Part shown: in pieces, positions 3,226 through 63,789 of the stretch
Layout of the letters: each line of letters opens with the position of its first letter
How positions within the stretch are numbered: the first letter of the stretch is position 1
NCBI GenBank assembly: GCA_021234155.1
Contig: JAJEKV010000094.1
Location: forward strand, 436,284-500,283
Source: Isoetes taiwanensis
Taxonomy: Eukaryota > Streptophyta > Lycopodiopsida > Isoetales > Isoetaceae
Length of the DNA: 64,000 nt
Direction of reading: 5' to 3'
Notes under the pieces: generated by a model
The model's database searches: none
The model's input: only the letters and a program-made list of their open reading frames with translations
Told to the model about the DNA's origin: nothing
Position numbers and translations under genes: made by a program

Positions 3226-3810
<585 letters not shown>

Positions 3811-5355: not shown

Positions 5356-6090
5356 TATCCAAAGCAAAAGCTAGAGCAATGATTCTTAACATAGAAGTAA
5401 GATATTTTTATCACGTCAACAGGTGGTGTTCACGTAAGCTTACATCAGCCATAGATCTTGGTGCAACTAGTCTTATCTTACACGAGCTTTTGTTCTATAG
5501 TCCCTATTATAATATTACCTTCTATTATTCTGTTGATGAGCCTTCAATGCAGTAGGGCTTGCAGCCTAGAGGGCCCTCTTCTTTTGAAGCTAAATTAGTG
5601 TAGTGCCCCCCGATTTCAACTGCTTTAACTTAGGCTGCACTACAAATTCTGCATTTTTTTTCGTTCATATATCTTCGCTTCCTCAAGGATCGATTCGATC
5701 TTGCTTTAAATTTCGTATTGTCAATTTGAACTTTGAGTCAACAAGTTGATTAGGTCTATCATATTCTTCAAATAAAGCTAAAGCTCAACCTCGCTTAAGT
5801 TACATCAGGCCATAGCTAGATACCAGACCCTGCTTTAAACCTCTAGGGGATGTCAAACTGATCTAGTAAGATAAACCCATTAAGGATAAATCTTTTTTAA
5901 ATTCAAAGCCTAAACGGTATCAACTTAACTTTGACGATAAAAATCATTCTTTCTTTCTTTCTTTCTTTGATTCATCAATCACATAAACTGTATTGTTGTC
6001 TCAAGGCCAAAGTCGCCAAAAGTTATGCAAACAGACGCTAATATTTGAGAAGATAAATCATCAGCAGACGATTTTTTTTTGCCCCAAAAT
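5356..6090. other. Intergenic DNA with a (TTTC)n run
   Basis: No coding signal is seen. A (TTTC)n run at 5948-5969 follows an A-rich stretch and could be another LINE tail, in plus orientation. Confidence 0.4.
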
Positions 6091-6225
6091 GGCATCGATC
6101 CAAGCCCCGATCATTATTCGGGATGGGACGATCGGCTATATATGTGCTCGTTATTCTTATGGCTCGTTGGCATCTTCTCACCAAGAAAGATCTCTTTCCT
6201 TGTCCATTGCTTCTTCTCCTCATCA
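6091..6225 (+). repeat. Dispersed repeat P, copy 1, with TATA-like box
   Basis: The segment from ggcatcgatccaagccccg through ctatatatgtgctcg to tctctttccttgtccattgc recurs at 12482-12610. Both copies keep the CTATATATG box and the pyrimidine-rich downstream part. That layout resembles a core promoter with a 5' leader, possibly of a mobile element. No ORF clearly follows. Confidence 0.75.
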
Positions 6226-6970
6226 TCTTGCTCCTCTTCCGGCGCCCTTCATCTTTACCACCATCCTTTCCTGTGTAAGCTTCGCCTATCTCGTGCACGA
6301 TGATTCCTTAATAGGTGGTGGTGAGAGCTTTCATGTTTGATTCCACTATCAATTGGTTATGGTCGCTCTTATTTGTTGTTTCTAGCGTAATTGTTTTGGG
6401 TTGATGAGGCTTTGATTATGGACTTGGGTTCCGGGTGATTGTTTGTCAATTAGGCTTTGTGGTCCTTGTACATGCAAATTTATAGATTATGAGCATTGAC
6501 TTCTCGCTGCTTTTGGTATTTGTAAAGTTGTTGTTCATGCCTGCGAAATTTCATAATTCTTTGTCCACGGCTCCAAACGGCATTTTTGCATCTTCTGCAA
6601 AGGGTTTTTACATCGGCCTGGTTGGCCTATTGCAGCTGGTTTTCACATCGCCTTTGCTGGCCGGCCCAAATGATTGCTCGCCAATTTCCATCAAATCACT
6701 CGGTGTCTCTTTGTCCTTTTAATGTTTTTATTTTGTTCTCTAGAACTTCTTACGATTGGCATTCATGAATTTTGCTCATATCGGTACTTCCTCGCCATGA
6801 TGTCGAGCTTGGTTGCGGGTCGAGAGTGCATTTTTGCCGAGGGCAGATTCGACATCTTGATGGTTGTACTCCATCGCCTAGGACCATGTTCATGGATCTT
6901 CCATATTAAATCTTTTCTATTTCCGCTTCCTCTTTTCGACCCCTTTTTTCCCTGGATTCAATATCTAATA

Positions 6971-7140
6971 TCTAGCACAATAACAGGGGCTTACTTTTAG
7001 ATTTTTATACGTTTTTTCACATGGTTTTTCTATGATTCCATTGTTGTATTAGTTGAGGTGTACTAGATAGTATTTCTAGAGTGCACCCTTTATGGGCCGT
7101 TGATTTTCGTTGGTTGGAACAATCCGAGGGTTGTTATCTT
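6971..7140 (+). repeat. Dispersed repeat Q, copy 1
   Basis: The block starts tctagcacaataacagggg and runs through ttttatacg, a T-rich stretch and tttctagagtgcaccctttatggg to a ttggttggaacaatccgaggg end. Related blocks are at 15913-16085 and 18404-18502. The terminal ccgttgg...aatccgagg segment resembles ends of plant DNA transposons, but I could not pair it with a partner end or target duplication. Confidence 0.7.
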
Positions 7141-7142
7141 TC

Positions 7143-7240
7143 TCTGCATGTGTTTGTGCATGAATACTGCGCATGTGTATGCATGTGCATGTGTACTGTG
7201 CATGTGCAAGTGCATGTGCATGTGTGCATGTGCATGTGTA
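7143..7240. repeat. (TGCATG)n-like low-complexity repeat
   Basis: Alternating purine-pyrimidine sequence built of tgcatg and gtgcatgtg units. ORFs across it are cysteine/methionine-rich artefacts. Confidence 0.9.
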
Positions 7241-7326
7241 CCCCTTTGGATTCTCGCTGCCGGAGTGGAATTTTGCTACTAGGAGGTGGATTTTTTGCTC
7301 ACACTTACAAAGGTATTTGTTTTTTA

Positions 7327-7350
7327 ATAGAATAGAATAGAATAGAATAG
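7327..7350. repeat. (AGAAT)n pentanucleotide repeat
   Basis: About five units of agaat followed by ggtttttaatg. The same pentamer flanks the LINE 3' end at 23.75 kb, so this is probably the tail of a minus-strand LINE remnant. Confidence 0.75.
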
Positions 7351-8460
7351 GTTTTTAATGTTTCTTCAGTTAGCATAATGGTTTTTTTTACAAGGTATTG
7401 GTTTCCCTCGTTCTACAATGTAGTGCTACAAAACCCGCCTTTGTTTCCCCTTTATATTCTAAGAACAACACATCAATATGGTCTTTGCCATGTGCGTGTG
7501 GTGGTTATACCGATGGTGGCGGGACCAATTGAACTTGATCTTCATTTATAGGGTTCTCTAGTATAGTAATAATGTTTGATCAACATCGTGTTTGACTTCG
7601 TGTGTCGAGGAATGTCATGTGGAATTGATGGATTGGGAGACTCTATAGTCCGCATTAATATAAAGGAAAAGAAATCGGTTAGATTGATTTTAATTTAGAA
7701 AATAGAACTTTAATAGCTTAAATGAAACCAATCAAATAAAAGCGCTCTACAATAATGTTTATTCATAAACCTTTAGTAGCTAAATAAAATTGAATCAAAT
7801 AAAAGATTTTGACATTGATATATGCTCTACAATAATGTTTTATTCACAAACCATTGCATGAACATCAACGCTACTCTGCAGCAGAATAATTGGTGAGGTT
7901 CATAAAGAACCGCTGAGACTTTTTTTATGGGTTGCCCCGGCTTTGGTTTAACAGTGAAGAGAATAAGCCAGCTTTGGTATGTGGAGTAGGTTTCTCGTGA
8001 ATCTGCCTGAAGCGAGATCAAGGGTAGAGTTTTTGAAGCAAGCTTGCTCGCTCGCTGCTCCACGGTTGTTACTTTTAGCTACGCTTATTTCTCTTTCACA
8101 ATGAAACCATTGTTTATCAATCTATACGATTTTGATGCTCCATTTCTAGTTTAAAGATAATGCATGATTCACCTTCTGGTTCGATTAAAGTTCCAAACCT
8201 ACAATATAAATGCATTCTTGTGGCCACCGCTTGACCGATTCAGATGACTCAAAAAGGGCATGGAATAATCCTTTTGCTGTGTACAAGAATCCGCTTTGTT
8301 GATTGAAGCTAAAGGTTGGCTCAGCTATGAACAATCCGGTAGGGGCCAGAAATATCCAAGAGTTGGAAGCAAACATAGGGCCTAAACTCTAGACTCTTTT
8401 TTGAATCAAGAACATGGTTGGTTGGATACATCAACTTTCATCATGCATCTCTACACTATC
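7351..8460. other. No recognised gene; small minus-strand ORFs
   Basis: Minus-strand ORFs at 8063-7827 and 8376-8185 encode 78 and 63 residues of ordinary composition, without any motif I recognise. A short direct repeat about 90 bases apart (around 7750 and 7832) contains ctctacaataatgttt. Confidence 0.35.
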
Positions 8461-8895
8461 CCCAAGGCCCCAAAGGGGCCAAAAATTTGTTAGTTAACAC
8501 AAACCATTACATCCAACACATTAAATTAGATTTTCCCTAAAACCCCGCTTTTGGTGCATATTCACACGGGAGTGACTCCTCGGGCAAGGAGAGCCGCTTT
8601 TATACCCCCTAAAACAAGATAATACATGCATGAAATCAACACAATTGAGTACATTGCCTCAAACGTTATAGTATTTCACAACTCTCATTATACAAAGATA
8701 AAAAAAATTCGCACGAAGCTTACCCCACAAATGAGGATCGCTATTCACGGTCCAAATCAAAGAATAAGTCGTGAATATGCCTATCCAATAGCTCTCATTG
8801 CCCAAGTCATCCCCTCGTGGAATATGCACCAAAACCAAAGGGGTTTTAGGGGAATTTAATTTAAAGTGTTGGATGTAGTGGTTTATGTTGATGTA
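8461..8895. mobile_element. Foldback/MITE family F, copy 1
   Basis: The left arm begins with the hairpin ggccccaaaggggcc, then aaccattacatccaacac and gtgcatattcacacggg. The right arm is its inverted complement (aatatgcaccaaaaccaaag through gtgttggatgtagtgg). Arms are roughly 130 bases around a core of about 200. Copies 2 and 3 are at 18046-18400 and 22008-22385. There is no transposase. Terminal inverted repeats with no coding capacity indicate a non-autonomous foldback element. Confidence 0.8.
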
Positions 8896-10125
8896 TCTTG
8901 GTCCTTCTAATTTTTTCAAGAACTACCGATTGCCGCCCTAAGCCATCGATTTTTCAATGTGGGATCCAGATCCGAGCTTCGGCTCTTTCCATTCCGACCG
9001 TTAGGTTGGATTTTGGCCAGCCGGGCCGGCGCGGCGCAGAACGCGGTGGTTGAGCCGCATGCAACATCGCTTCATCGATTTTTAGTGATACCGCTTTGCA
9101 GCCCTCAACCTTTCTTATGCTTCCTTTTCTTAACTTGCCCAGCTCCCCCAACCAAAGAGATTTCAATGGCTTTTAAACTTTTCCATCCCCAAAATTTCAA
9201 TCGAATTTGAGCTTTGTTGCACCACACACCTCTATATTTTTCCAACATCACAACAAGAATTATCCCGGACCTCAGATTTTCATTGCAAGTAGGCATAATT
9301 CCAGCTTTTTTGGTGTAGTATAGTTTTTCATGCTATAGTCTCAGATAAGCATTTCTATTCATGTATGGTTTCGAGGAGGATGCCGGACTTCTTCTGTGAT
9401 AGATCCGTGTTCAAATTTGTCAGGGCGCACTTAGTATCCATTTGAGTCATCTCGTGATATTTTTCATGGCTACTTTTAGTTCTCGATTGAATGCTTATAA
9501 AGATATACAATTGTTGGGCCATACACAATTTATACATTTTCATCTTTTCTTATGAATGTAAAATGTGTAGAGTTCTAAAAGTATTGATCCTATTCATAAA
9601 TGGCATATAGGACCTGAATCCTTTCTAGATTGTTTCCGAACCATTCCTAGAAGGGGCCCTACATCATTCCTTGAAGCGCCCGCCTTCGTTATTTTCTTAG
9701 ATCTATGAGTCTAACTAACGTGATTGATGCACAATTCATGTTGTTAGACGTCGAATCCTATTTGTTTAAGTATGGCAACTCTTGGCTACTTTTCCAAGTA
9801 TGTGTTTTGGAGCTTATTATATTCTTTGATTGTTTTCCCCCGATGGCTCTCCATGTTGTTGTCAAGAGGCATCATAGGTTTTTTTGTCCTTGTGTGCATC
9901 TATATTTAGCGTTTTGAATTTGTCATTGAGCATCACATTGAGCATCGTGGGTTGTATTTTTGAAGTTGTTTGCTAGTCATTGAGCATCCCGCAAAGTGGT
10001 GATTCTTGTTTAGTTCCAGCCATTTCTGGTATCTATGTTTATCGATTACATGTGGATTCGATAAATAGTGTGTTGCATTCTCCGTGATCTTCATGAACAT
10101 TTTTGTATGTTATGAAAAAAATTTC
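8896..10125. other. No gene seen; GC-rich patch at 8955-9075
   Basis: The patch at 8955-9075 is distinctly GC-rich (gccagccgggccggcgcggcgc) in AT-rich surroundings. Neither strand shows a recognisable protein. The rest is T-rich, with short chance ORFs. Confidence 0.35.
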
Positions 10126-11670
10126 ATTTTTCCCTCAATTTGGCCTTGACATTAATTTTATCTTCGTTGTTGATCTCTCTCTCGACCTCGAAGTTTCCCT
10201 TCTCAAATTTCACTTGGCCCCTTTGCCTTTTTCATGTGTATCTATGCATCCTTCTATCGGTTCCACCTCCATGTCGGTTTGATTTCGAATTTAGCTGATT
10301 TACCCTTTATCTCAACTTTGTTTTGTTGTCCTTTTGTTTACTTGTTCATTTGAACATAGACCTCTACCCCATTCGACGGCTTAGCCTTTCTTCACGTAAG
10401 CGGCAAGATTCAAGACTAATCGCACATACGCTTTAATTGTACTTTTCATATCCAGGTACCACTAAAACTTCGACTCTCCTTTTTTAGTAGGTATCCTCTT
10501 TCCATGTCTATTCAAATAAAGTTTTTCTTTGCATCCACATTTCACCACATACTATTCACATTGTAGTCCGTGACTGCAATTAATTTGGCCATAAATTTTC
10601 TCCTACATTTGCTTATCATTCTCGTTGTTAGACAACATTGGGTTACTTCATCTTAGAGGGATATGATCATTTTGCATTGGTGGACTTGCTAATTGCCACA
10701 TTCGCCATTTCATCTTAGAGGGATCCGCCTACTTTGCCTTGCTACTTAATTAGATTCCCTAGGATGAAAGAATTGGTTCACGCGCTTTCCTTTAGACATA
10801 CCGCTTCTATTGCTATATAGTATCATGGATCACGTTTTTGTTATAGGACCTTCATATCTTATTATATTTCTAAATGATCATCCCATTGATATTCTTGCAT
10901 TGCCTCTTCCACTGTCCCATTCTCGCCTCTGCCCTCGCATTTGCAATTTGACATGTTCTATATTTGTGGACTCATTCGATGCATGTTGATTTTGGCTTTT
11001 TATTTAAGACATACTACTACATATATATGTTTCGGTATTTGTGGTTTTTTCGTTATGTGGAGCTTCTTCCACTATTTTTTCATTGCTTGCTCTCTATCCC
11101 CACGTATTTTACTAGGCTAGCTCGACTATTTTTCGCCTTCTCTCATTCGGGCCAAGATTTAATTCCATGGATCTTTGGGGATTATGCCATAGTTCCATTT
11201 GTATTTAGGTGCTTGTGTTCTAACCTTTTCCTTGCAAGAGTCATGTGGTTTTTTATTTTCGCACATTTCACGATTTCTTTAATATTTTCTCTCATTTTCT
11301 AAAGTTTAATGTTGTTTCATCCAATAGAACTCATTAAACATGTTCATCGATCATATATAATGCGTATTAGATGGTCGGGTGCTATATTCCCAATTTCCTG
11401 TATTTTTTACATTTTTATAACTATTTTGAATTCCCCTCGTGTTGGCCTTTGCATTAGCTTTGTTCTTGACATGATCTCAACTTCGACCTCAAGACGCCTT
11501 TCTCGACTTTTGACTTTGTCCCATTGCTTGATTTTCATGTGTATCCAACCAACCGCTTCTACCAAAAATCAATCCTCCATGTCGGTTTAACTTCAATTTC
11601 GCTTTTTCCCCGACCTCAACCTTGATTTCTATCATTTTGTCCATTTACCCATTCGATCGATTTCACCTCC
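10126..11670. repeat. Diverged internal duplication, pyrimidine-rich
   Basis: 10130-10400 and 11400-11670 share the order gacctcgaag or gacctcaag, then ttttcatgtgtatc, then ctccatgtcggttt. A second diverged pair, catcttagagggat, is at about 10645 and 10712. The bias is strong (pyrimidine on plus, purine on minus). It may be a decayed minus-strand transposon ORF; the repeated minus-strand peptide contains KPTWR, which I cannot assign. Confidence 0.5.
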
Positions 11671-12116
11671 TTCACGAAAATGGTGCATCTACAAAGGACT
11701 GTATGCTTTTTCGCCCTCGAATTTGTTTATGACTCACCCATCAACTCTCTCCCTTTTAGTGAGTAACTTTTTTCTTGATGGCTCTACTAACAATATGTCA
11801 CTTTATCGAGTCATTATATTTTCATTTTCATTTTGTATGTACATTACGCCTTTTCGCTTTATTATTGCATAATATGCTAACGCTAACTTTACTAGCACGA
11901 TGTCACTTTTAAATACTATGGCTCAATCTCCATACAATCCAACCCCACCTTGGCACTCTTGACCTCCATCTCCTTTTTCCCCTCGGCTATAACCTTATCT
12001 TCATCTCCTTTTTCCCCTTCGACCTCATATTTCAACCTTCTCCTTTCGTGTATAACCATTTTAATTTTCTTCGGATTTGTCTCACTTTTGTTCGACCCAA
12101 CGATGTGATTTACATT

Positions 12117-33339: not shown

Positions 33340-33900
33340 CCACACTACCACACCCCCACCATTACTCCACCACACCACATCATACCACCACACACCACAC
33401 ACACACCACCACCACCACCACCACCACACACCCCACACACCACCACCACACCATTCACCACACACCACATCCGCTCGTGAATATGATAGTTGGTGTATGG
33501 TCTATGGTGTATGGTGTGTGGTGAATGGTGTGGTGTGTGGTGGAGTGTGTGGTGGGGTATGTGGTGAATGGTGTGGTGTGTGGTGGGATGTGCCTGCTCG
33601 TGAATATGATAGTTGGTGTATGGTCTATGGTGTATGGTGTGTGGTGAATGGTGTGGTGTGTGGTGGGGTGAGTGGTGGGGTGTGTGGTGGGGTGTGTGGT
33701 GAATGGTGTGGTGTGTGGTGGGATGTGCTCGCTCGTGAATATGATAGTTGGTGTATGGTCTATGGTGTATGGTGTGTGGTGAATGGTGTGGTGTGGTGGG
33801 GTGTGTGGTGAATGGTGTGGTGCGTGGTGGGATGTGCCTGCTCGGGTGAATATGATAGTGTGGGGCATGGTATGGTGCATGGTTTGGTGGTATACACACC
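33340..33900. repeat. CACCA/GGTGTG-rich minisatellite
   Basis: 33340-33472 is almost purely C and A (CAC/CCA words). 33473-33900 is its G/T complement-like counterpart, organised in four units that begin gctcgtgaatatgatag at 33473, 33596, 33731 and 33840 (the last with one extra base). The two halves are thus partly inverted. The long ORFs across it (160 and 191 codons of H, T, P or V, G, W) are compositional artefacts. Confidence 0.95.
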
Positions 33901-49394: not shown

Positions 49395-50860
49395 TCAATG
49401 ACCTTGGCTCCCCAACTGATCGCGGATCCCTTCGCCGTCGGTAGGCCAATTATGTTCTTCCAGTCCCCATTTATGTAACCACTCTTTTACTTCTTGGAAC
49501 CACCCTTGGCTGCTCGAGGTTTGCATTGCAAGGTGAGGAAGCCGACTCTCCTCTAGATTGCTGATCCTGTTAACATATGATAATGTTTGGCACAAAGCTT
49601 CACCTCTAAGGGAAGCATCCCCTGTCTCGCTAAAATCATTGCATAAGGCACTTGTTTTTATCCCAAGTTCTTCCCCGGCGAAGAGTTTGAGCACTCCTTC
49701 TATCTTCTCCCACATTTTGCTCGATAGAGATGGCCCCAAATTGGACAGCCCATATAGCACTACAGCTTGCACCGTGGTACGAAAAGAGCATTTTTGGAGC
49801 TTCCATCCCCGCTAAACCAGCTTTATGGCATCTTTGCAACATGCCGTGGCAGGCACGCTTTGCCTCCTCGCAATGCGTTTTCAATGCAAACCTTCTAGCT
49901 GTAATTTGAGCAGAATTCCAATCCTAGATATTTGTAAACATTAACCAATTCCAACCGCTCATTCTGATAAAAAGAAATCTGGTTTTGAGAACGTGCCACT
50001 TACCATGCATTTAGACTTGGATAAGTTCACCTTCATACATTTGTCCAGGCAAAAGAGGGCCGATTGTCTAGATATGTTTGTAACCCTTGTGAAGTTTAGA
50101 GAGAAGGACCACGCCATCTCGCATATATTAAGAGTTGGATAAGAAAGTTTCCAAGCAATGTTCCAAATTGTCCTTTGGATCTCATCCATTCTTCTAGGGA
50201 GTCAATGTAAAGCCCAAGAGCTTAGGGAGATAAGGGGCAGCCTTGTTTCACGCCACCGTGTGAACCTCATCCGTAGTTTTTCACAGAAAGTTTAGCAATT
50301 ACCTCTTCATACAATTTGGCCACAATGCCCCACGTATTCTCCGGAAGGCCTAACTCTTCCATCCTCTCTTCTAGGCCTGCTCTGGGACTGAGTCGAAAAA
50401 GCCTTCAGAAATCAATGAAAGCCATGTGCAACGATTTTTCCGGGACGCTTAGCTCTCCATTAAGACTCTGATCGAAAAATGTGATCATAAGTGCTATGAT
50501 CCTTCCCAAATCCTCGCTTGGGTGATGGTCCTCTTATCCGAGAATCAGCCCATGCAGCAATTTTCTTCTCGAGAATGCCTCCAAAGATTTTTGGAAAAAT
50601 GATGCCTACTAAGATTGTTCTCAGAAGCTCCCCGCGATCCCGCCTATCTCCCCGCTTTGTAAATAGATACTACTCGCATGTTTGCCATTGTCTAGGGAGA
50701 CCCTCCTTTGTCGCATCATTAAGAACCTTCGTGAGATATGGAATCAGCCCATCTCCTCCCCATTTTATCAATTCAAATTAAAGCCCTTCTAAATCGACCG
50801 CCTTCCCATTTGCCAATGATCGAAAGTGTACTCTTTAACCTCTGCCCTAAGTGAAAAGAT
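49395..50860 (-). pseudogene. LINE reverse transcriptase and connector
   Basis: LANGKAVDLEGL and LIKWGGDGLIPYLTKVLN (about 50815-50710), KIFGGILEKKIAAWADSRI (about 50590), GVKQGCPLSP-like (about 50245), a damaged LIYADD-like box (LIYARWRGPSL, about 50130), then VNLSKSKCMVSGT and a long thumb/connector ORF (49772-49395: YGLSNLGPSLSSKMWEKIEG). The aspartates of YADD are lost through frame errors in this copy. Confidence 0.8.
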
Positions 50861-51599
50861 CTTCTAAAATGGTGCAACCTTTCATCTTTGAAGCCCGTGG
50901 GGCATAATACAATTCCTTTGACAAATTCTAGCGCCTTTGATGTCTCCAAATTATGCCCTTCGTGGTGGCATGGCCAACTTAGACCAAAGCTTCTTGGCTT
51001 TTCTTCAAAAGCGCACTAAGGCCACTTGCCGAGTCTTGTAAAAGTCCGCCTTCTTCTTCTTTAAAGCTTTTTGTACCAATCGAGGTTTCATTTTCAGACC
51101 CTCGACGGCAATGACCTTCTCGGGCTATGAAGCATTCTTGGTCCCACCAAGACTTGGATTTCAGCGTGGGCAAGCTCGGGTTTCTCCAAAGCTTTTTCCG
51201 GCTGCATTCAGATAACTTGGGATAAGGATTGAGCATTTGGGCGCTTCCTTACGCTTTCAAGCAATCTAGACAAAGCTTGTTGGTAGGCGTCTCTTTTCAC
51301 ATAATCCAGCTTTGATTTTTGGGGCAAATTCCTTTTCCACTTTGCATTTTCGAAAACTCATATCCAAAGCAAAAAGGGACAGTACATGGTCCAACTCGTT
51401 GCTTGTCAATCGCCTTTGAGATAAGGGACTCGCTTCAGGGATCAGCGCTTAGCAGATAATCAACCGTCATCGCCTCCTTGCTAAGTAAAACATGTTGGCT
51501 TGTTAGTGCCCGGATATTTCAAATGCCATTGAGTATTTTAGATTGCGATGGAGCCAAGCTCTAACAAAGAGCTTACCCATTTGGTTTTTTATTCTGTTA

Positions 51600-52140
51600 G
51601 CCGAAGCTTCACAAATTGGGGATCATAGACTTCTTCTAACATCCGACATCCTCGGTATATTTGATACATTGCATATTTCGTGTCCTGGCATTAAAATCCC
51701 CTACTAGGACCTGTCCTTTATCTTGAAAATCTTGAATCTGCAATGTAAGAGCATGGTATGGATGGTCCGAGTCCATTCCTTCCTGTTTATACACCTTCAT
51801 ATTCAACGGCGCATAGTAGCAAGCAGCCAGGAATATTGGGTGAGATGTTCCTACTTTTATCCACATAAATTGACTCAGGTGTCTTTTTGTGCCACTCGAG
51901 ATGCTATCTCAAATTGTTTTCGGGCATACAATGCTATGCCTCCAAAACCACGACCCATGCACGAATCTTTCATATTCCATACTGCATCAACAAAGGCAAA
52001 ACCTGTCAAATCTGGTAATGAACTTGACTGGTGCTGCCATGTTTCCAGAAAAATTATAACATCTGCATTTTCCCAAATGTGTACTGTTGCATCTATTTTA
52101 GCCTGGTGTAAACCATGGATATTCCAAAGACATGACCTTT
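51600..52140 (-). pseudogene. LINE endonuclease domain
   Basis: Landmarks in order: WNIHGL, ADVIIFLETWQ (metal-binding E), GRGFGGIALYARK, then after a shift ACYYAPLN and VLVGDFNART. GDFNAR contains the catalytic aspartate and asparagine of AP-type endonucleases. It would nick target DNA to prime reverse transcription. Confidence 0.85.
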
Positions 52141-52489
52141 AGGTCTCGCTTTCCCTATTCTCGATTTTCTTCTCTTTGTTACAATGGGTGGTCCATCCAT
52201 CATAAGCGAATTTCATTAAAGTTGGAAATTTCGCGATTCCAATTTCTCGTGAAATCGCTTTCTTCCCTTTTATCACACATTTATGGCTAGATATGGCACT
52301 ATTTGCTTAAAAAGAAACCAGCTTATCATGCAAAAAACCGCTACATTTAATATAAAACAAATACGGTTTTAGTTGTCGAAGAGAACTATGGCGCCATTTA
52401 CTTGGAAAGTATGAGGAAAAGCTGCCCGAGAAACACAAAAAGCAAATATTAAATTGCCAAAAAAAGCCTCAAAGAAGCAAACAAAATGG

Positions 52490-52705
52490 CGCCGGCCGCT
52501 CCTTTAGCTTAGAAATAACCACAAAGCAAATAGCGTTGGAACGCCGATATTTGCTTTAACGCGAAAGGAAGCAATGGTGCAGCGCCGCTTATTTGCTTGA
52601 ACGGAAAGCAAGCAAATAGTGCGACGCTTATTTAAGAGCTTGTGCAAATAGTGCAAAGCCGCTTATTTGGCGTGAACGTGAAGACCAAGCAAATAGTGCT
52701 CGCGC
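52490..52705. repeat. GCGC inverted-repeat array 1
   Basis: Repeated words caaatagtgc, gcgcc and gcttatttg in both orientations (agcaaatagtgc, gccgcttatttg). Each pair could form a short hairpin. Lies just downstream of the minus-strand ParB/methylase-like relic. Confidence 0.75.
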
Positions 52706-53089
52706 CATTTTGCTATAGATAACACATATTTTCGAAGACCATGTAGATATATATATTAATAGAAATATTATATAAGATACAATTTTTCAAAACACGTAAT
52801 TTTTTTTAATAGTCATTGGCTAAGTGTTCATCGAGACTTTCTCATAATCATCCGTGTTAATTTTATCAAGGGTCAATTTGATCCCCGCTCGCTCCAGCTT
52901 TGGGCCGACGCCTCACCTTTCTCTCAGATGAGAAGCTTCTTCGTCTGCCCCTTCTCGAGATTCACCATCTTGCAAAGTCAAGACTTCCCGCTGGCATGCT
53001 GGTCAATGGCCTTTGGGTCAAGCCGGGGTACATGACGCTCTCGACCCTACCTGTAATGCCCGCCACGATTTCATCTTTCCTAACTCATG

Positions 53090-54345
53090 CTCAGATGTCA
53101 CAATCCGATTCTTCCTACATGAAGGGATGCCCTAGAGAAGGCTCCACCGTAGAAGAAATCTAGTACAATGTTACCTTGAGGGCAGAGCTTATCAACAAGG
53201 TAGAACGCAGCTTGCAGGACCAATCTGTTTATGCACCGATATATTCTCCTCCATACCCCTCGCCAACTCCACTTAAACCCTGCCTTGCATGAGTTTTTTA
53301 GCCATAACATCGCCTCACTTCCGGCATGCTTCCTTTAGGAATAGGAGGAATTTATGGAGCTTTCTAGGATGGTCGCCAAATAGCCTAAGGTCCGTGTCTT
53401 CGCCGCTCTCCGCCTCAGCGTCGAAATCCTCAGAAGCAAATAGAAGAGCTTGTGGCTCTTTGATTCCCTCGAACCACCGTAGCTCCGTGCTCTTCTTCAT
53501 AGATTCCTACAAACACTCTAGACCCGATTCTAGTCTTTCAAGCGACCGGCAAATAGTAAGTTATGTTCCGCCCGACGAAACATAGAATCCAAGATGTCTC
53601 TTGGTCTCGCCATCCGTGAGACATTATTGAAGAACGCTGTTACAGCCTCACTTTTCCAAGCCGAGTAAGCCGCCTTGCATCTAAACATATCATGCCGGCA
53701 GTAGAACCGCACGCTCGCTCGAATCCCCCCAGTGACATGCTCCACAAACCATCTTGGCGTGGCCTTTTCTCGCTTTCAGTCAAGGATTTTTCAATGGACC
53801 TGGCCAAGGAGAATGGCATGTTACCATGAACTCCCCTTTTGAGTATTCCTTCCTGCACTCCACTTATGGTGGCATACCCCAAAACCGTAAGTGCTTAATC
53901 CGAGAAGTGGTCTCGTGGCTTTCCTTAGGTCCTCTCGAATTTCTTGTACTTAGTGCCAATCTGACCGCAATGAAGTGCGATCTCCTTCTTCATGTAAGCA
54001 AGTACTCTTAAGTTCTCATACCGCCTTGAAGAAATTATCGCTTTTGTAATCTGAGGTGACTTTGACGATATATCCCCGCTTAAAGTTTCTTCGAGGACCT
54101 TTCTACAATCATCATAGTCCAAGCCCCTCATGCATCTAAGGTAGTTGTCACCGGCAATCTTTTGTCTTTAGCAAAATTGATTACTATAGCTTGACCCCTC
54201 GTTGTCCTTAGTTCTCCCTTCCTCCATTTGTTCCACATCCGGGCGAAGAGTGCATAGACATCATCCGGCATGAAGACAAACCGATTGACATCCTTCGTGT
54301 GTTTGCCCCTCTAATCTTGTCTCCATTTCAAGGTAGTGCCGCAAG
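53090..54345 (-). pseudogene. Downstream part of the ParB/methylase-like gene, with DNA-methylase-like motif
   Basis: Overlapping minus ORFs cover most of this interval. 54131-53925 encodes GLDYDDCRKVLEETLSGDIS. 53882-53530 holds MPFSLARSIEKSLTESEKRP and, in a second frame, SEAVTAFFNNVSRMARPRDI. 53310-53115 holds YLVDKLCPQGNIVLDFFYGG followed by AFSRASLHVGR. The last resembles motif I of N4/N6 DNA methyltransferases (pGd-V-L-D-x-F-x-G-s-G-x-x-x-x-A-a-l-x-x-G-R), although the second glycine pattern is GG rather than GxG. I find no D/S-P-P-Y/W box. In beta-class enzymes motif I comes C-terminal, which fits the order here. Function is inference. Confidence 0.45.
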
Positions 54346-54374
54346 AGAGTCGGGCATTTTAGAATTTCAAATGT

Positions 54375-54535
54375 TGCTATTTACATCTAATGGCGCAATG
54401 CGCTTATTTGAATTGAAATGGCGCAAGGCTTATTTGAATCGAAATGGCGCAAAAAAGCGCCATTTGATCGAAATGGCGCAGTGCTTTTGATTTACATCAA
54501 ATAGCGCAGCTGCCATTTCGATAAAATGAATGGGT
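54375..54535. repeat. GCGC inverted-repeat array 2, inside a likely intron
   Basis: Six or more aaatggcgca / gcgccattt words in both orientations, e.g. gaaatggcgcaaaaaagcgccatttgatcg. It sits directly downstream of the AAG/GTATGT donor at 54554/54553 of the minus-strand gene. Confidence 0.85.
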
Positions 54536-54553
54536 AAGGAGACGAAAACATAC

Positions 54554-55175
54554 CTTGTACTCGCACTTCTTGATCGCCCTTACCAAATAGGGCTGGTCTT
54601 CCGCGATTCCCGGTAATCGCTATAAGATGGTGGATCTGATCCACATATGGTTCCTTGAAGACAGCTTTGCTACTATATCATTCACATCCACACCGAAATA
54701 AGAAGGTCCGTGTCACCGATCTCTCCGTAAAGAACTCGCGATATTCTATAGACATAGATCTTGCCGAGCTCAGCCTAGCATCCTCTCGTCCCCAACTTAT
54801 CGCATTACACGAGCCGAAAGCAAAGAAATGACCGAATGATTACCATTGATAATATAAAATCTTTTCCGAATCAAGTCAGATTCCTGTGACCAGCTCAGCA
54901 ACTCCTTTGTATCCGGATCAAAGGGCACTACATCTCATCGGAGTGAATACCGGTGTGGATCCTCAAAGAAATGATTTGCGTAGCCTCCTAACATGCTCGG
55001 GGTTAATAACCCTGGCGGTCATATTAGGTGGGGCCTCTTCTAGATCCCAGATAGATATTCTTCTGGTGTATGTGACTCCAAGGGGGAACATGTGGCCGTG
55101 CTTTTGTATTTTCTTTAGTGTTTCCTCTGCCATTTCTTCTTCTTCGTCACGGTCCATCTTTAGTTCCTCGGGCAC
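54554..55175 (-). pseudogene. ParB/Srx-like domain exon of a plant gene
   Basis: The minus strand encodes MFPLGVTYTRRISIWDLEEA, then NMTARVINPEHVRRLRKSF, then after shifts VVPFDPDTKELLSW and RFYIINGNHSV, and ends KKCEYK at an AAG/GTATGT splice donor. The order (A-R-x-I-x-P-x-H-V-x-x-L-x-x-S, then I-I-N-G-N-H) parallels ParB N-terminal/sulfiredoxin-fold domains (R-x-D-x-x-x-i-x-x-L-x-x-S-I, then i-x-G-x-x-R), with N-G-N-H-S in place of G-G-H-R-R. Bacterial and phage ParB-like domains are often fused to DNA methylases, and a methylase-like motif lies downstream. The peptide is unknown to me in plants. Confidence 0.5.
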
Positions 55176-55465
55176 TTCAAGATCTGCAATCTTTTGTAAT
55201 TTCCTTTGCCCTTATCTCTGCTTTGGTTTGTGGCTTTCTCTTTGCTGGAGTGCTATCTCGGCCGTGGATGCTACATTTCTTATGTGCTTTGTAGCCTCCT
55301 TATTGTCACTAATAGTGCGGGTTACTATCGTGAGCTTTTCATCAAGAAGCTTTCGTGACTTCACTTGAGAATCATGTTTGTGAGCCTCGCCTCATCCCTC
55401 TTCTCATCCCTATGTCCCTCCCCTTCTCAACTTCGCCCTTCTTCTTGTTCTCAGATCCCCGTACA

Positions 55466-56140
55466 TCACCACCTCCACTGCTTTTGTTCCTTTGCCGCCT
55501 TTGGTGGCATTTTTAATTTTACACCTTTTCTCTCAGATTCTCCCAAAGAGCCATCCGGCCGTCCATTATCGGGCCGCATAAGTTGTTTCGAGAGCTTCGC
55601 TTTTACAATGTAGGACACGGGAGTTTTTGACATGTCCATGGCCGCCGCATGTATCATCAATCCTTTGAGGATCTCTACCGCGCCTTTGATATCCGCTGCT
55701 CTCGACTCATAAGATGGCAGCGCCAACCTTTTTTCTTGGCCGATGCTGCTTGGTCCTTCATGCCGACTCCATCATTGCAAGCTCGTGAGTAATCGCCAAT
55801 CCATGCAATAGAGATCAATGCCGCCACTCGACCGATCTTCCATCAGGTAACCAAGAAAGTCAAGTCTTCCTTGTTTCTTTTTGACTTCTCTCATGTTGAC
55901 AATGATGCCCATCCGGGCCACTCTGCTGAGGCTCCTTCTTCAATTGCACTGATTTGACAAGGAGGCAAAGTTCTCGCTTCTTGTCTCCCCTTTGGTTGGG
56001 TCTACGCCACCAAGGGTATGGCTCTAACGATCTCCATACACCAAGACCTTCCAAATGAGGACTATGCTCCTCAAGTCACCACGCTCCATTTCTTCTACAA
56101 GACCAGCCACCAAGCAGGTAAGCATGGTGAGAGAAATGGC
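55466..56140 (-). pseudogene. N-terminal part of the ParB/methylase-like gene
   Basis: From high to low coordinates: GLVEEMERGDLRSIVLIWKV, MGIIVNMREVKKKQGRLDFL, then ORF 55726-55466 (AADIKGAVEILKGLMIHAAA). A linker, ISDNKEATKHI/STAEIALQQRES-like in broken frames (55345-55200), leads to the ParB-like exon. Soluble, charged composition. An acceptor-like pyrimidine stretch lies beyond 56110. No known domain in this part. Confidence 0.35.
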
Positions 56141-56159
56141 ATGTGCTAGAAAGTTAAAA

Positions 56160-56560
56160 CAGTAAACGGTATTTAGATTAAATGGCGCAATTTAGATCTG
56201 TAAAATGGCGCACTGGGCCATTTATTTAGCTTTTTATATAATAGAGCAAATGGCGCAGTGCTTATTTAGACTAAAATGGCGCAAATGGGCCATTTTGAAG
56301 GGGACGAAGGGACCCATAAAGAGCTTAATTAAAGCCTAGTTTAGCGCCATTTAGTTTAAATGGCGACTGCGCTACTATTTAGTCTAAAATGGCGCAGTGC
56401 CATTTGCTCTTTTATGGGTCCGCTTCTACAAGAATATTAACAGACATTATAGAAATGGCGCTACCCATTTCACAAACTATAGGAGGAAAAGGTCGCTACA
56501 AACCCACCCTTCTTCCTAATGAAATGGCGCCCGCGCGCCCATTTCAGCTTACCTAAGACA
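56160..56560. repeat. GCGC inverted-repeat array 3
   Basis: About ten aaatggcgc / gcgccattt words in both orientations between 56160 and 56560, often paired around gcagtgc. Located at the 5' side of the minus-strand gene, probably intron or leader. Confidence 0.85.
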
Positions 56561-57415
56561 CTACACTTCAGCTACCTAAGACACTACCTAAGAAACAACA
56601 GATACTAACCTCGAAGCCCGCTCCCCGGATTTTGATCAAGATTGCGCCATTGTATAAAAGTATAAAAGTACACTAACCGTATAAATCCTACTCCACTTTT
56701 TTTTCCGAAAGCCCCCTGATCAACAAAGCGCCAGAGAGAGAAGATGGTTGAATAGGAGAGAGAATGTGCAAGGGCGCTTAGGCGCCAGGGGCGCTAAGGC
56801 TAAGGCGAAGGCTAAGGCTAAGGCTGAGGCGAGAAAAGAACAATGAAATTGAAAATGAAAATTGACTGAAAGAAAAGAAAAGAAAAGTCTGGGAAAGAAA
56901 AGAAAACCAATTTTACCCGCCTCGCCTCTTCAAATTTATACTGTCATTCCGCCTCGAAATTTTGAAAATTTCGATTTTTCCCCCCCAAGTCCGCTCTCTA
57001 CAAATTTTAAAAATTTTGAATTTTCCCCGCCAACCGCTTTCTCCCGCCGCTCACCATTATAAATCTTAGGTAGTTTAAGTCATTCCGCCAAGACGCCAGA
57101 AACCCGCCTACTACCAAATTTGAAATTTGAATTTGCCCGCCTGTATTTTGAACTTTGAATTTGCCCGCCGCCCACTTCATAATGGGCGCTTTTCACCGCT
57201 CATTGCCGTGAGGCGCATATGGTCATTAGAAGGCGCTATACTCGACCCGACGGCTATGCATTTTATGCACCTCGCCCCTCGCTTTCAATATTCGTGAGGT
57301 TTTGCGCTTTTGAGATCTCTTTTTGGTCGAAAGCAGGGCTTTTCTCCGACGCCTATTCCGCCTTTAGACGCTTGGTTCCTTAGTCGATAGCAAAGAGCTT
57401 TGCCGCCTTGGCCGC
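56561..57415. other. GC-word-rich non-coding DNA
   Basis: Includes an (aaggct)n/gcgctaagg minisatellite at about 56775-56835 and repeated tttgaattttcccgcc words (56950-57180). ggcgc words are frequent throughout. Could contain the promoter of the minus-strand gene, but no clear TATA box is assigned. Confidence 0.4.
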
Positions 57416-57419
57416 TTGT

Positions 57420-57615
57420 CTTTTTTTGTACCGCTTAGCCCTTGTCTTCATTCTTCAGCGCGCAGCTTTCGTTTCTTAGGGCGCCGGCTTCATTCTTCAG
57501 CGCTATTTCATTCCAGTGGCGCCGCCTTCATTTTTCAGCGCTTTGTCCAGATTCTCCAAGCGCTTGTCCGCATTGTCAAGATTATTCAGCGCTTGACCAA
57601 ATTCTTCAGCGCATT
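57420..57615. repeat. ttcttcagcgc minisatellite
   Basis: Imperfect units of about 30 bases centred on ttcttcagcgc recur about six times. ORFs across it (FFSA.SF/HSSARS) are artefacts of this repeat. Confidence 0.8.
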
Positions 57616-57844
57616 CTCCTCGATATGGCGATCCTAATCGCCAATGACGCCCGTGTTAGAGGCTATTCAGTTCTAGTAAAATGTTTTAGTATGTTTAATG
57701 TAGGATGTAGGATGTTAAATATTTTAATATGTTTAAGGGTAGATCTTCTCTATCTTGTTCAAGAGATAAGTTCTCAACAATTGATGTCTTGTCAATCTTG
57801 TAGTAATAGAAATCCATAACTCTAGCTATTAGATATAGCATTTA

Positions 57845-58110
57845 GAATAAAGATGCCATTTACCGTCAATGGGCCATTTTCCTTGAATGGAGCAAATAAA
57901 ATTCCTTGAAATGGAGCACCGCGCTTATTTCCCTTTAAAATGACGCAAATATTTAATGGGAAATGGCGCAAATGCCCATTTCAAGGGAATGGCGCAAATG
58001 CTCCATTTCAAGGAAAATGGCCTATTGATTGTAAATGGCGCAAATTCGCGCCATTTCAAGGTAAATGAGCGCGATCAAGGCCATTTCAGAAATGGAGCAC
58101 CGCTACCATT
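57845..58110. repeat. GCGC inverted-repeat array 4
   Basis: aaatggcgcaaatgcccatttcaagg and its inverted relatives recur about ten times. The same word family as arrays 1-3. Confidence 0.85.
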
Positions 58111-58199
58111 TGTCTCATGTCGTATAATTTCTTTCACATTTTCGCTTATTTTCACTAAGTATATGTCATCGAGGGTTGCATGTCTCTAACAAGTATATA

Positions 58200-58810
58200 T
58201 ATATATGTGTATTGATTCTCACAGAAAAGGCCCCCTCGCAAATCCTTGTCGATGGGGATGTGGTAGCTGCCGTGGGACATGAATTGCATAGAGGCCATCT
58301 CGCATGGCAGAACATTCCATGGTGCAATGTGGTCGCGGAGGTCACCGAAGCCATAGTGCCCACCCATGTGCTTCCCATTCCGTGAGGGAGCGTATAACAT
58401 TGCCGGGCCGGGGGACATTTATCGAATGGCCTCAAATCAAGTGAAATAATCGCGGAAGGAGCCCCAACTTACTCATCGGAAACGCCCGATAATCGAAACC
58501 CCGAACTTGCCTAGTAGTCCCTCCACAACATCATCGACTCGCTAAGTCGATCGCCCGCCCTTCAAACAAGAAGCAAAGACAGAATATGGTGAACCTTGTC
58601 GCAATAATACCGTGGGTTGGTAAGGGTGTCTTGGTGAATAGAACTTGCATCCATGGGAAGAATGTTGACGCACTCAACGAAGCAAAGGTAAGTTACCGAG
58701 GTCGTGGTGCCTACCCACATCCTTCCGATTCCATGTGATGGCGCCGACAACATTGAAGAGGTCAGGGCACGCTTATCGAATGGCCTCGCAAAGATATAAG
58801 ATATCATGCC
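58200..58810 (+). pseudogene. Duplicated transposon-like domain
   Basis: Two related stretches on the plus strand: HELHRGHLAWQNIPWCNVV ... IVPTHVLPIP (58270-58385) and CIHGKNVDALNEAKV ... VVPTHILPIP ... GTLIEWPRK (58640-58795). The pattern hydrophobic-H-G/R-x...V-x-V...P-I-P...A-x-N-I...G-x-x-I-E-W-P loosely resembles the C-terminal domain of plant En/Spm (CACTA) proteins. It may form the N-terminal part of the DUF7869-like gene downstream, on the same strand. Confidence 0.35.
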
Positions 58811-59855
58811 ATTGATTTAGCTACTCCATCACCGACCTCGATTGTAGAATCAGAGGGCAATGTCGATGCGATGAAGAAATTGATCCTACAAAGGGATCTA
58901 GGTACACGCTTTTCCTCGCAGGATAGCATCGATGATGATGAACCACCACCTAGTTTCTCAAGAACTCCATCTCTTGATAAGCATTGCCACATTCTTCATG
59001 CATGTGACCGGCAAATATGCAGAGGCCATAATTGTCTTCGATCCCCGTGATGCCGCTGACGATGAATTTTAGGAGACTCAAAGGTGGGGCTCAGGGGGAA
59101 AGATCCTTCCCCGCACTAATTACAGAGGATCTCAAATGTCATGCTTGTGCGTAAAGGCCGCCAGAAAATTACCTTGTACAATGGGAAAATAGCGATGTGA
59201 TGTCAGCAGGATGGAAGGACTGCCTCACAACATCCGCAAGCTCGAGAAGCTAAAGAAAATGAGGATATGGAAATAGAATCTTTGAGGACAACATTCAGGC
59301 TCAATTCAAACGAAAAAGGAAGTATACTTACACACATAGGATTCCAAGACAACCCAAGGGAAAGAGCAAAGAGGAAAGGCTATGCTCCACAACTTCAATC
59401 AATAAGTTCATGAAGACAAGTCACCTGCAAAAATACTTGCAACAAGAAACTTACCAAGCATCAAGTATGTGAATTAAGAAAAGAATTTTTATCTCAACCA
59501 TACAATGCAAGGGTTACGATTTTTTTGACGGGCCGAAAGTGACTTACACAGAGAAGGAGAGGACAGATAGTGCTCAAGGGATGGAATTGCCCTCACCGGT
59601 GGCGATGGCTTTTAGGTATCACCACCAACATTTTACAATTGGAGAAACAGATTTGAAGCAGTGCAAAGGTAGTCAACATGGTAATATCGGCTCTAAGAAG
59701 CCCGTGATCCACTACACCGGCCAATCAATGTGTGCTAGACAGATTCATTCAGAGAATGTCAAAGTATTCCCCATAGGAGCAAAAAAAAAGAGGTAGAGAT
59801 GATGTAAGAGAAAATGTACCTAAGCTTCCTTCCATTCTTAATAAGAAGCTTATAC
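58811..59855. other. Weak coding scraps, no assigned gene
   Basis: Plus-strand pieces such as HVTGKYAEAIIVFDPRDAAD (about 58990-59070) and an 85-codon ORF at 59539 have ordinary composition but no recognised domain. They could be exons of the adjoining element. Confidence 0.3.
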
Positions 59856-61620
59856 ATAAAGAAGTTGGAGCAAAAGGAAGAGCTTACAGAACAACCTGTA
59901 GCCTTGAACTCTTTTTATAGTATATGGAAAAGGGAATTTCCAGATGTTAGCATTGCAAAAAATACAGCCTTCTAAATGCAACATCTCAAGGTGGTAATTA
60001 AGCAAAAAGCCGGAAAAAAAAAAAAGATACAAGAGAGAGACGAAATCTTGCAATTCAACGTCGGGCTCATATATGCTAGAGCAACGCCTTTGCGTAAGTC
60101 AATATTGGCATTGGAGAGCATTGTCACAAATGTCTCCTCGAAAATCATCTATGTATAATACATGATAAGATGGATCAGGTTAAGACTTTAGTGCCTAGAA
60201 GTCATCATCTAGCAAAATCAGATGGAGAGGTGATCGCTTGAAGAGTAGTTTGACAGAGCTTTGACTCATGGGCATGGTGGTCGTGCCTATGGTCATTTTT
60301 CACTTGATTTATGGAAAGATGATTCAAACTTCCACATTGGTTCACTTTCTAGAATATTGCATAACTTGGAATTGGTGCAAGAGGACAAGATAGGTGACTT
60401 ATGTGGAAGTAAGCCCAGAGATTGCAAATGGATGCAAGCAAATAAGGACATCAATCCTTTGAAGAACAAACTTGCTTCCATGGGAGAAGTATTGCCAAAT
60501 ACTTCAACTACAACTAATCCCGAGGTGTTCAACCCTCTTCCCAAATCTCTATTTGCAACTTGATAATGCAAAGGGCAAAACAAAAATAGGTATGTCTTTT
60601 CATACTTATCTTATTTGACTTGGCTTAAGGTCTTTGATGAGATCCAAGTGGGCTTTTTATGATGGTCGGCCACACCCATGATGATATTGATGCTTTATTT
60701 GGAAATTTTTCAACCTTTGATGAGTTCGGGTTTGATGCTTTGACACTACCGTGAGCTACTTTACTTGTTTAGCAATGCAATGCAAAATCCCCAATTCCAT
60801 ACTTTATTGATGAAGTTCCAAATTGAAGGATTTTGTGAAGGGATTCATCCCTCGATAAGGGCCAACGCCTGGTTGGGCATAATCGAACCATTGCTCTTCA
60901 AATTTAAGATGGCGGAGATTGGCCTGTTATGCAATACAAAATGCGCCCTACACATAAAGAGTGGCTTCCAAAGCAGATTCTCCGTGAGTTAGAATGTGGA
61001 AAGAGGATGAACATGGTCAGCCAATGATACCAAGTGGTGTGCCACAAAATATTCCTCCTAGACCAACATTGAAAGATCTTCCGTGGTTGAAGGATAGCAT
61101 CAACAAATACATCTCCCTATGGAAGGACATATGTAAGAATCAAGAAAGTAGCTTGTTTGCAAGGCAATACACGGCAAGTGTTGAGTATTGGAGCCAGCCT
61201 TTCTTATCTCTTTGAGGATGTTGCTTCAGACGCCCTCAAAATGATGCATTTTGGCCACAAACAAGACAAGCTCCTCTAGAACAAATAGCATTTGTTCCAG
61301 AGGTCGACGAGATTCGCCTTTGGTCACACCCACCTTTACCATCTTATTGTGGCCCGCCGATGGTCGCCCGCTGTTGCCTCTTGAAGAGTTTGATCCTCAC
61401 GCATATGTGACAAAGGGTATGTTTGTTCTAGTCGACTGAGATGATAACACCGCCACTTGGTTAGATATGCAGAGGAGAATGTTGTTCTTGATCCGTAATC
61501 TACATATTTTGGCCATATTTTTGTATCGTGGTGGAAGCCTACCGAGGGGACTACAAAGACCGCTTGACTAAGCGCCATGCCTAATCCTTCCGATCCTTCA
61601 AGGTATGAAAATTTAGATGC
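59856..61620 (+). pseudogene. DUF7869-like transposon-associated gene
   Basis: In order: LNSFYSIWKREFPDVSIAKN (about 59900), AGKKKKIQERDEIL (60005), QLDNAKG (60555), VGHTHDDIDALFGNFSTFDE (about 60665-60725), PWLKDSINKYISLWKDICKN (about 61080) and KGMFVLVD (61415) followed by shifted AEENVVLD and SWWKPTEGT-like pieces (to 61560). The Q-L-D-N...G-H-T-H-D-D-I-D-x-x-F combination is diagnostic of the DUF7869 family as I know it, common in large plant, algal and invertebrate genomes and suspected to be transposon-derived. Frames change repeatedly. No terminal repeats found. Confidence 0.6.
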
Positions 61621-61649
61621 TATTCATTATGCCCGATGCCAATGGCAAG

Positions 61650-62090
61650 AGGCCAAAAAAAAAAATTCAAATATATTATAGACATGTGGAAAGACATAGC
61701 ACATTGTTCATCTTAATACATGAGATCTTGTACTTGTAATACATATCTTTCATCTTAATACATAACATTACTATATTTGTGATCATATATAACCGCTACA
61801 TCTTTAATATATAAATGCATACATGATTCATAGATAAGATGGTCGGTGCTTATATGTTGAACAGTGATTCAATCATCTTCGTGATCTCAGAGTAGTGATC
61901 CCCTCGATATCTCATAGCTCATGCGCCAGAAGCCATATCGATGGATCATAACACCTAATTGACGCAGGCAATGAATCTCACCAAAAGCTTTTCTTCGCAG
62001 TAGGATCAAGAAGAAGATGCCTATCTAGGCAACCAACAAGATCGAGTGGCTCATCGAGCACTTGATCGCCGATGTGGTGAATAGAAGAAG
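61650..62090. other. AT-rich DNA, no clear gene
   Basis: Short run of A at 61658, then atac/catac-rich sequence. The minus strand at 62110-61900 has an open stretch (GDQVLDEPLDLVGCLDRHLL) of unknown identity. Confidence 0.3.
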
Positions 62091-62094
62091 GAAA

Positions 62095-62165
62095 ATAATC
62101 CATGGGAGACGAATGACCCTAGCCCCAATGGAGCTGTTTTTATAGTGAAGTAAAATTATTGGGGT
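62095..62165. repeat. Dispersed repeat T, copy 1
   Basis: ccatgggagacgaatgaccc, atggagc and tttttatagtgaagtaaaattattg also occur at 62683-62740, beside the 67-codon minus ORF. On the minus strand both copies lie just upstream of an ORF, with ttcactataaa resembling a TATA box, so this may be a duplicated promoter/leader. Confidence 0.7.
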
Positions 62166-62477
62166 GGATCAGAAGCCATCATTGAGCGTATACAAGTATC
62201 ATGTACTGCATGTATGATTCTATCATGTACTCGATTCTATACATCAACTAATATTCACTATGCTTATATTATATATATCCCAATGTATACAAAATCATAA
62301 GTGCTTATATTAGGTATACATATCATAGATGATTCACTCGCCATTGCACGACTAATATAGGTGTGATTGAAAATAAAAGACAACTTGCATAGTTCATAGG
62401 TACTCATGTCATTATTATATCCTTAGCGCATACGCATTCACTCATCATCAACATCAAAGCACGTGATGCTATTCAGC

Positions 62478-62681
62478 TCAAAGATCTCCCCGATCGTGAA
62501 GCCAATAAAGGTGGACCTTAACACGAAAGTGAGCTTCCCCGCAAGCACTCAGTAGACCATCCGCTTTGGACCGCAGCCATGGATCAAGTTTGATACCATT
62601 TCTGTAGCATTCACACGCATCATTATAGCTAAGGTAGCACCCGGCGGATTGATGTTCTCGACGATCGTGCAAGGAAGCCAT
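62478..62681 (-). CDS. TPR-like ORF, 67 codons
   Basis: MASLHDRREHQSAGCYLSYN begins at the end of repeat T copy 2. NDACECYRNGIKLDPW resembles a TPR helix pair (A-x-x-x-Y-x-x-x-I-x-L-x-P). Too short for a functional TPR protein. A diverged counterpart downstream of repeat T copy 1 (62110-61900) suggests a local gene duplication. Confidence 0.35.
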   Translation of the reverse strand: MASLHDRREHQSAGCYLSYNDACECYRNGIKLDPWLRSKADGLLSACGEAHFRVKVHLYWLHDRGDL

Positions 62682-62682
62682 G

Positions 62683-62745
62683 GGAGATGAATGAGCTCTA
62701 CCACCGATGGAGCGCTTTTATAGTGAAGTAAAATTATTGATGTGA
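62683..62745. repeat. Dispersed repeat T, copy 2
   Basis: Matches 62095-62165 in the same orientation (catgggagatgaatgagc, cttttatagtgaagtaaaattattg). Confidence 0.7.
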
Positions 62746-62818
62746 ATTATTGGTGTTCATTGCCTTTATAATGAAAGTACCATACATGTATATGATCCAA
62801 TAATTTCTATGTATATAC

Positions 62819-62895
62819 TATCAATAATTTTGATGAGTATATACCATCAATAATTTTGGTGGGTATACCATCAATAATTTTGGTGGGTATAAATA
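62819..62895. repeat. Minisatellite, unit about 25 bp
   Basis: Three units of atcaataattttggtgggtat with one variant. Confidence 0.9.
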
Positions 62896-63194
62896 TACAT
62901 CAAATTGCCGAAAAAAGAACATTGGCCTCCGCCTAGCTATGACTTATTCTCGTCTTGAACGTGATTCTATCACTTGCAAGATGAATCATGAGGACTTCAA
63001 GCCGTGCCGCGAGCCAGATATACCGCTTGAAGACCGCTCACCATCGCTGTTCTCAATCCTCGCCATTATCCCCGATCCCGCCGATGTTATCATCCATCTC
63101 CCCGTGGAATAGGGAGTATCAAATGTTCATGATCGAAAGGATCTCGAGCGCCTTCGCTAGTTCTCGATCATTCGTAGTAATAGTAGAAGAATAA

Positions 63195-63475
63195 TATTAC
63201 TTGTTATCTTATTGTAATCTGTTGTGTTAGTATACAACAGTACACATAACCTTTTGTAATACACATAACCGTAATATAAGTAATAGTAAAATAATAGTAC
63301 TTGTTATCTTATTGTAATCTGGTTGTACTCTTTATTGTTATCTTATTGTAATCTTATTGTTATCGGTATACATAACCTTTTGTAATACACATAACCATAG
63401 TATGCAACAGGTATACATAACCTTTTGTAATACACATAACCATACTATAAGTATTGAGGTATACATAACCCTCCA
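63195..63475. repeat. Minisatellite, acataaccttttgtaatac and related units
   Basis: Interleaved units acataaccttttgtaatac (four copies) and ttgttatcttattgtaatc (three copies). Confidence 0.9.
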
Positions 63476-63789
63476 AGGTATACTATATAAAAATTATTCC
63501 AACTTGTCTTCAGAATTCCAACTTTAATGAAACTCTGCTTTCATCAAGACAAGATTACATAATAACAATACACGTACAAAATGCATCAAGAATGCTCAGA
63601 CTCCAAGGGGTTCAACCGACAAATGTGGCCTTTAGATAACAAATGCATTTAATCAAGACAATGGCATTGGCTGGCATAAAACAATGGCTAGGGTAGTCCA
63701 AATTCATCCTCCCTCCCCGTACACTTTGTAGATAGGCTGAAACATGCTATGGCATGAATGTAACCTTCCGGAGATGTAATCTCATAGAT

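What the first reader, a model, noticed from the sequence alone, without database searches (positions are those of the whole stretch)
53090..56140. Plant gene relic joining a ParB/Srx-like domain and a DNA-methylase-like motif
The minus strand shows ARVINPEHVRRLRKSF and IINGNHSV (ParB/sulfiredoxin-fold pattern), a splice donor, and about 1.4 kb further NIVLDFFYGG and AFSRASLHVGR, close to methyltransferase motif I. ParB-like plus N4/N6 methylase fusions are known from phages and bacteria. A spliced plant version would be unexpected: a captured DNA-modification module, a transposon protein, or a nuclear gene family. I know of no description. The P-P-Y catalytic box is not visible and frames are broken.
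Basis: partly seen in the sequence, partly recalled or inferred. Interest (0 to 1): 0.8.

Follow-up and report, generated by a model that had tools for sequence, protein, structure and literature searches.

The report
Plant transposon gene with methylase-like domain

The parts
52204..63540 (.). whole DNA transposon, 11,337 bp
   Evidence: shared with copies on C907, C1034 and C1107; TIRs and 4-bp TSD
63516..63540 (-). left terminal inverted repeat (25 bp as queried)
52204..52227 (-). right terminal inverted repeat, imperfect in this copy
52200..52203 (.). target-site duplication, ATGA in element orientation; twin at 63541-63544
54554..56037 (-). exon 1 of the accessory gene (limits inferred): N-terminal domain, charged linker, ParB-like region; many frameshifts
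   Evidence: frameshift-aware fit to the L028 open frame, 56037 to 54557; donor by reading; alignments A2, A4
54342..54553 (-). intron (inferred, no transcript), with AAATGGCGC repeats
   Evidence: donor; exon limits; tandem repeat 54389-54484
52809..54341 (-). exon 2: helical part, then methylase fold without catalytic box
58931..61565 (+). DUF7869 gene on the opposite strand, taken as the transposase (broken here)
   Evidence: tblastn of pieces from relatives; DUF7869 E 1.1e-17 in the L032 piece; the window stretch itself was not scanned with Pfam
60413..60715 (+). stretch matching the L032 piece that holds DUF7869 (64% identity)
52393..58080 (.). AAATGGC/AAATGGCGC clusters: 52393-52704, 54416-54512, 56134-56522, 57855-58080 (one more AAATGGC at 55129, in exon 1)

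Best explanation
The finding is one damaged copy of the accessory gene of a large TIR DNA transposon, probably Sola-like, in a lycophyte genome. The element carries two divergent genes: a DUF7869 gene taken as the transposase, and a gene for a protein of about 1,000 residues (length inferred) made of an N-terminal domain, a charged linker, a ParB-like region and a DNA-methylase fold. Shown by computation: element limits, high copy number, gene order, predicted methylase fold, absence of the catalytic box, repeated motif. Inferred: the protein binds the AAATGGCGC arrays of its own element through the ParB-like and/or methylase-like part, and does not methylate. Bound there, it either protects the element from host silencing (as VANC proteins do for VANDAL elements) or acts as a DNA-binding partner of the transposase. 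My split: transposon gene 0.97; class-beta methylase fold 0.93; no methyl transfer 0.75; ParB/Srx fold 0.65; binds the repeated motif 0.45; anti-silencing rather than another role 0.3.
Confidence: 0.6

Rival explanations
1. The protein is an active N6A or N4C methylase that marks its own element, using an unusual catalytic motif, as proposed in print for the algal relatives.
For: Methylase fold; partly kept motif I and the motif II acid; apparent purifying selection; the algal protein is predicted to make 4mC or 6mA (PMC12477816).
Against: No [DNS]PP[YFW] in any of the 23 rows of A1 and A2 (only DPPN in a C-terminal tail of 2 rows, APPN in 3 and SPPI in 1 exon-1 row); LDAR/LDTR at the motif IV strand in 9 of 9 rows; first glycine of motif I variable (G/A/C/R). 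Not a full test: the genome-wide PF01555 search did not complete.
Confidence: 0.17
2. The protein is mainly a transposition subunit: it binds internal repeats and brings the ends together for the transposase, with no part in silencing.
For: Both genes are found together in diverged elements; motif arrays lie in noncoding parts of the element.
Against: In the window element AAATGGC lies between 52393 and 58080, with none in the left 5.4 kb; in element A the full motif lies at 6005-9968 of 631-11956, away from both ends.
Confidence: 0.3
3. A cargo gene with no role in the element, decaying after capture.
For: The window copy and others are frameshifted.
Against: Open frames across subfamilies about 40% identical and low dN/dS between two groups. 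Most indels between copies are 1-2 bases (10 of 30 copies compared with L012), as residual long-read error would also give.
Confidence: 0.1

Closest known systems
Sola1-1_Ec32 of Ectocarpus and its green and red algal counterparts (PMC12477816; passages read; the cited green and red algal works not seen)
   Same: Large DNA transposon; accessory gene opposite the transposase; ParB-like plus DNA-methylase domains; 1104 residues there, about 1,000 inferred here.
   Different: Host is a land plant; 11.3 kb rather than 21.5 kb; catalytic box absent (whether the algal protein has it was not checked); homology between the two proteins not tested.
Phage ParB-N6_N4 methylase fusions (PMC12704722; passages read)
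   Same: Same pair of domains proposed.
   Different: Phage proteins; here the ParB nucleotide-binding arginine and the methylase catalytic box are both missing.
VANC anti-silencing proteins of VANDAL transposons (PMC5735166, PMC10398659; search listing and start of abstracts only)
   Same: Transposon-encoded, sequence-specific protein; here a protein proposed to act on its own element through a short repeated motif.
   Different: No sequence or domain relation tested; function here is only inferred.
N4CMT of bdelloid rotifers (PMC8885841; passages read)
   Same: Amino-methylase of bacterial type in a eukaryote; its structures are rows 14-16 of the fold matches.
   Different: N4CMT has SPPY, is active, and is a captured host gene linked to transposon silencing.

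Membership tests
Class-beta N6_N4 DNA methylase (PF01555) | permuted fold: motif IV half, then motifs X, I, II | tested here: met
Class-beta N6_N4 DNA methylase (PF01555) | catalytic (D/N/S)PP(Y/F/W) | tested here: not met
   LDAR/LDTR in 9 of 9 rows that cover the site, several of one subfamily; none in 23 rows of A1 and A2
Class-beta N6_N4 DNA methylase (PF01555) | motif I FxGxG for SAM | tested here: inconclusive
   FSxG[AS] in 8 of 8 rows that cover it, first glycine variable
Class-beta N6_N4 DNA methylase (PF01555) | Pfam score over cut-off | tested here: not met
   18.8 bits against 26.7 for the best-described member, L049
ParB/Srx fold | fold | tested here: inconclusive
   strand/helix order fits by eye but model pLDDT 37
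ParB/Srx fold | sequence or profile match (PF02195, P1 ParB, PHROGs) | tested here: inconclusive
   no PF02195 match, none to P1 ParB; phrog_16091, without description, in 5 of 11 members, best E 0.0065
ParB/Srx fold | Box II arginine for nucleotide | tested here: not met
   GNH[ST] in 11 of 11 rows; role of the arginine from PMC12704722; the alignment to Box II is by eye
Sola superfamily | 4-bp TSD with TIRs | tested here: met
   5 of 5 elements in which both ends were read; in 2 further elements the left end was not found in the stretch fetched; criterion from PMC10741241 and PMC3627910
Sola superfamily | Sola transposase homology | not testable with these tools
   no Repbase; DUF7869 hit only

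The most novel reading that the evidence does not exclude
A plant transposon has turned a captured bacterial ParB-methylase into a catalytically dead, sequence-specific DNA binder with its own iterated site (AAATGGCGC), a self-targeting system convergent with VANC anti-silencing proteins, kept across deeply diverged subfamilies.
Probability: 0.25. Interest if true: 0.8.

Novelty: new variant of a known kind. Interest (0 to 1): 0.55.

Why it matters
If it binds its own repeats without methylating, it shows a route by which transposons turn a bacterial DNA writer into a self-recognition protein, and gives a ready motif to test how large elements persist in seed-free plants. It also extends an accessory gene class reported from algae to a land plant.

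Tried and rejected
Judged unlikely: a single-copy host gene (40 places by DNA and 151 exon-1 matches; only 7 elements were followed to their ends, so a domesticated copy elsewhere is not excluded); a viral insert (no relative confirmed in viral contigs, pattern-limited scans; phage tblastn of exon 2 gave 37 records, E 4 to 10 in the 10 rows shown, all 10 on genes annotated as methylases; exon 1 no phage match); a prokaryotic contaminant (no relative of exon 1 confirmed in genome contigs; exon 2 not tried there). PF02195 in the own genome gave nothing. NCBIfam gave nothing for 6 proteins. PDB sequence searches with single proteins gave nothing; profiles gave M.RsrI at E 0.21-0.22 and a chance hit for exon 2, and nothing relevant for exon 1. 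Pfam with exon-1 members gave 11 families at E 0.033 or worse, none ParB. The exon-1 fold search listed no ParB chain; the model is too poor for that to count. Papers: in the rows listed by searches (15 of 157; 12 of 40; 3 of 3; 10 of 12; 8 of 547) I saw no land-plant case; DUF7869 is in no paper. References 50 and 51 of PMC12477816 (Iyer 2011, Petroll 2025) are not held, so their content is known only from the citing passage. The species name rests on assembly size (1658.26 Mb in 1110 contigs here; 1658.30 Mb and 204 + 909 sequences in PMC8566536, passages read).

Never answered: a genome-wide exon-2 search, a PF01555 search of the own genome and a genome-wide motif-pair search; so a copy with an intact catalytic box elsewhere in this genome is not excluded.

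Full report
What is there. The quoted peptides lie on the minus strand at the given place. A DNA search of the plant assembly shows that the region is repeated: 69 matched pieces at 40 places, 30 fetched. In 28 of the 30 fetched copies the shared sequence ends at the base that is window 52204, where unrelated flanks begin (L002 and L021 stop earlier). The other end of the window element is at 63540. The two ends are inverted repeats of about 25 bp. Perfect 4-bp target duplications flank 5 elements: window ATGA, C907 ATAA, C1107 TTTG, C1034 TTAG, element A ACTT; in 2 further elements (the L028 copy and element B) the left end was not found in the stretch fetched. The element is thus an 11.3-kb DNA transposon.

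Genes. In relatives exon 1 lies in open frames of 521-603 codons (10 copies) and exon 2 in frames of 528-564 codons (3 copies), counted from stop to stop. An exon-1 protein search gave 151 matches (150 of 5050 candidates scored), from 100% down to 50% identity in the rows listed. Another gene runs the opposite way, at window 58931-61565; the matching piece of a sister copy hits DUF7869 at E 1.1e-17. I take it as the transposase; that is inference. Element A, whose accessory protein (L043) is 39-46% identical to those of L028, L048, L049, L010 and L017, shares this region with the window at 69% DNA identity over 2.3 kb and has its own TIRs.

ParB part. The strings NPEHV..L..SF, V.PF and YYI.NGNHS..AAQLV, and the strand order in a poor model (mean pLDDT 37), resemble ParB/Srx by eye. 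No test here confirms it; in PHROGs 5 of 11 members match a family without description, phrog_16091, best E 0.0065, which I could not identify. The nucleotide-binding arginine is not there. I keep 'ParB-like' as a working name, helped by the published algal architecture.

Is it alive? dN/dS is 0.10-0.15 in the 4 pairs between the L028/L017 and L048/L049 groups, with dS of 2.1-2.9; 13 of 46 pairs were computable in all, range 0.10-0.54, and 33 gave no dS. The window copy holds many frameshifts but only 2 in-frame stops in the fitted parts, and most indels between copies are 1-2 bases, at 0.20-0.39 indels per substitution in 10 comparisons with L012 (10 of 30 copies taken). Residual long-read error may explain part of the damage; the assembly used Nanopore reads. 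This is a suspicion, not a result.

A repeated motif. AAATGGCGC occurs 18 times in the window element and 0 times in the other 52,663 bases of the window; 26 times in element A, 16 in the C907 copy, 23 in the 15.7-kb stretch B. AAATGGC was seen 29, 33 and 28 times in the window element, element A and the C907 copy, against about 3 expected (100 first-order Markov sequences each, maximum 9). None of the 18 and none of the 26 full motifs lies in the inferred coding parts, about half of each element; of the shorter AAATGGC, 1 of 29 and 4 of 33 do. Copies are clustered, so the binomial figures there overstate the odds, and the coding limits of element A are rough. In element A 17 palindromes ATGGCGCCAT occur, in the window and C907 elements 1 each. 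A motif kept across subfamilies, in the intron and between genes, looks like a protein-binding site. That the accessory protein is its reader is my inference. How common the motif is elsewhere in the genome did not complete.

Comparison. Ectocarpus Sola1-1_Ec32 has a ParB-methylase gene opposite the transposase, and the authors cite green and red algal cases. So the kind is known. New are the land-plant host, the missing catalytic box and the motif arrays, as far as the listed searches show. VANC proteins give a model of how such a protein could work; I saw only the listing and abstract starts.

Noticed in passing
window 50000-52140, minus strand: ORF pieces that look by eye like a LINE (endonuclease-like), just beyond the transposon end.
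   Followed up: no
L029, frame starting at 4926: A 227-aa frame resembling by eye the N-terminal part of the DUF7869 gene, running across and beyond the right end of that copy: perhaps a related element as target or neighbour.
   Followed up: no
L043:4294-4801, L049:1-792 (minus), L055: Gypsy-type retrotransposon pieces (integrase, chromodomain-like, gag-like) beside these copies, by eye.
   Followed up: no
window 33367-33891: CA/GT-rich minisatellite with a ~135-bp higher unit.
   Followed up: no
element A (L052+L043+L053): Palindrome ATGGCGCCAT 17 times in element A but once in the window element: subfamilies may differ in site form.
   Followed up: partly
alignment A5 (ParB-like region): 5 of 11 members match phrog_16091, a phage protein family without description, best E 0.0065.
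   Followed up: no
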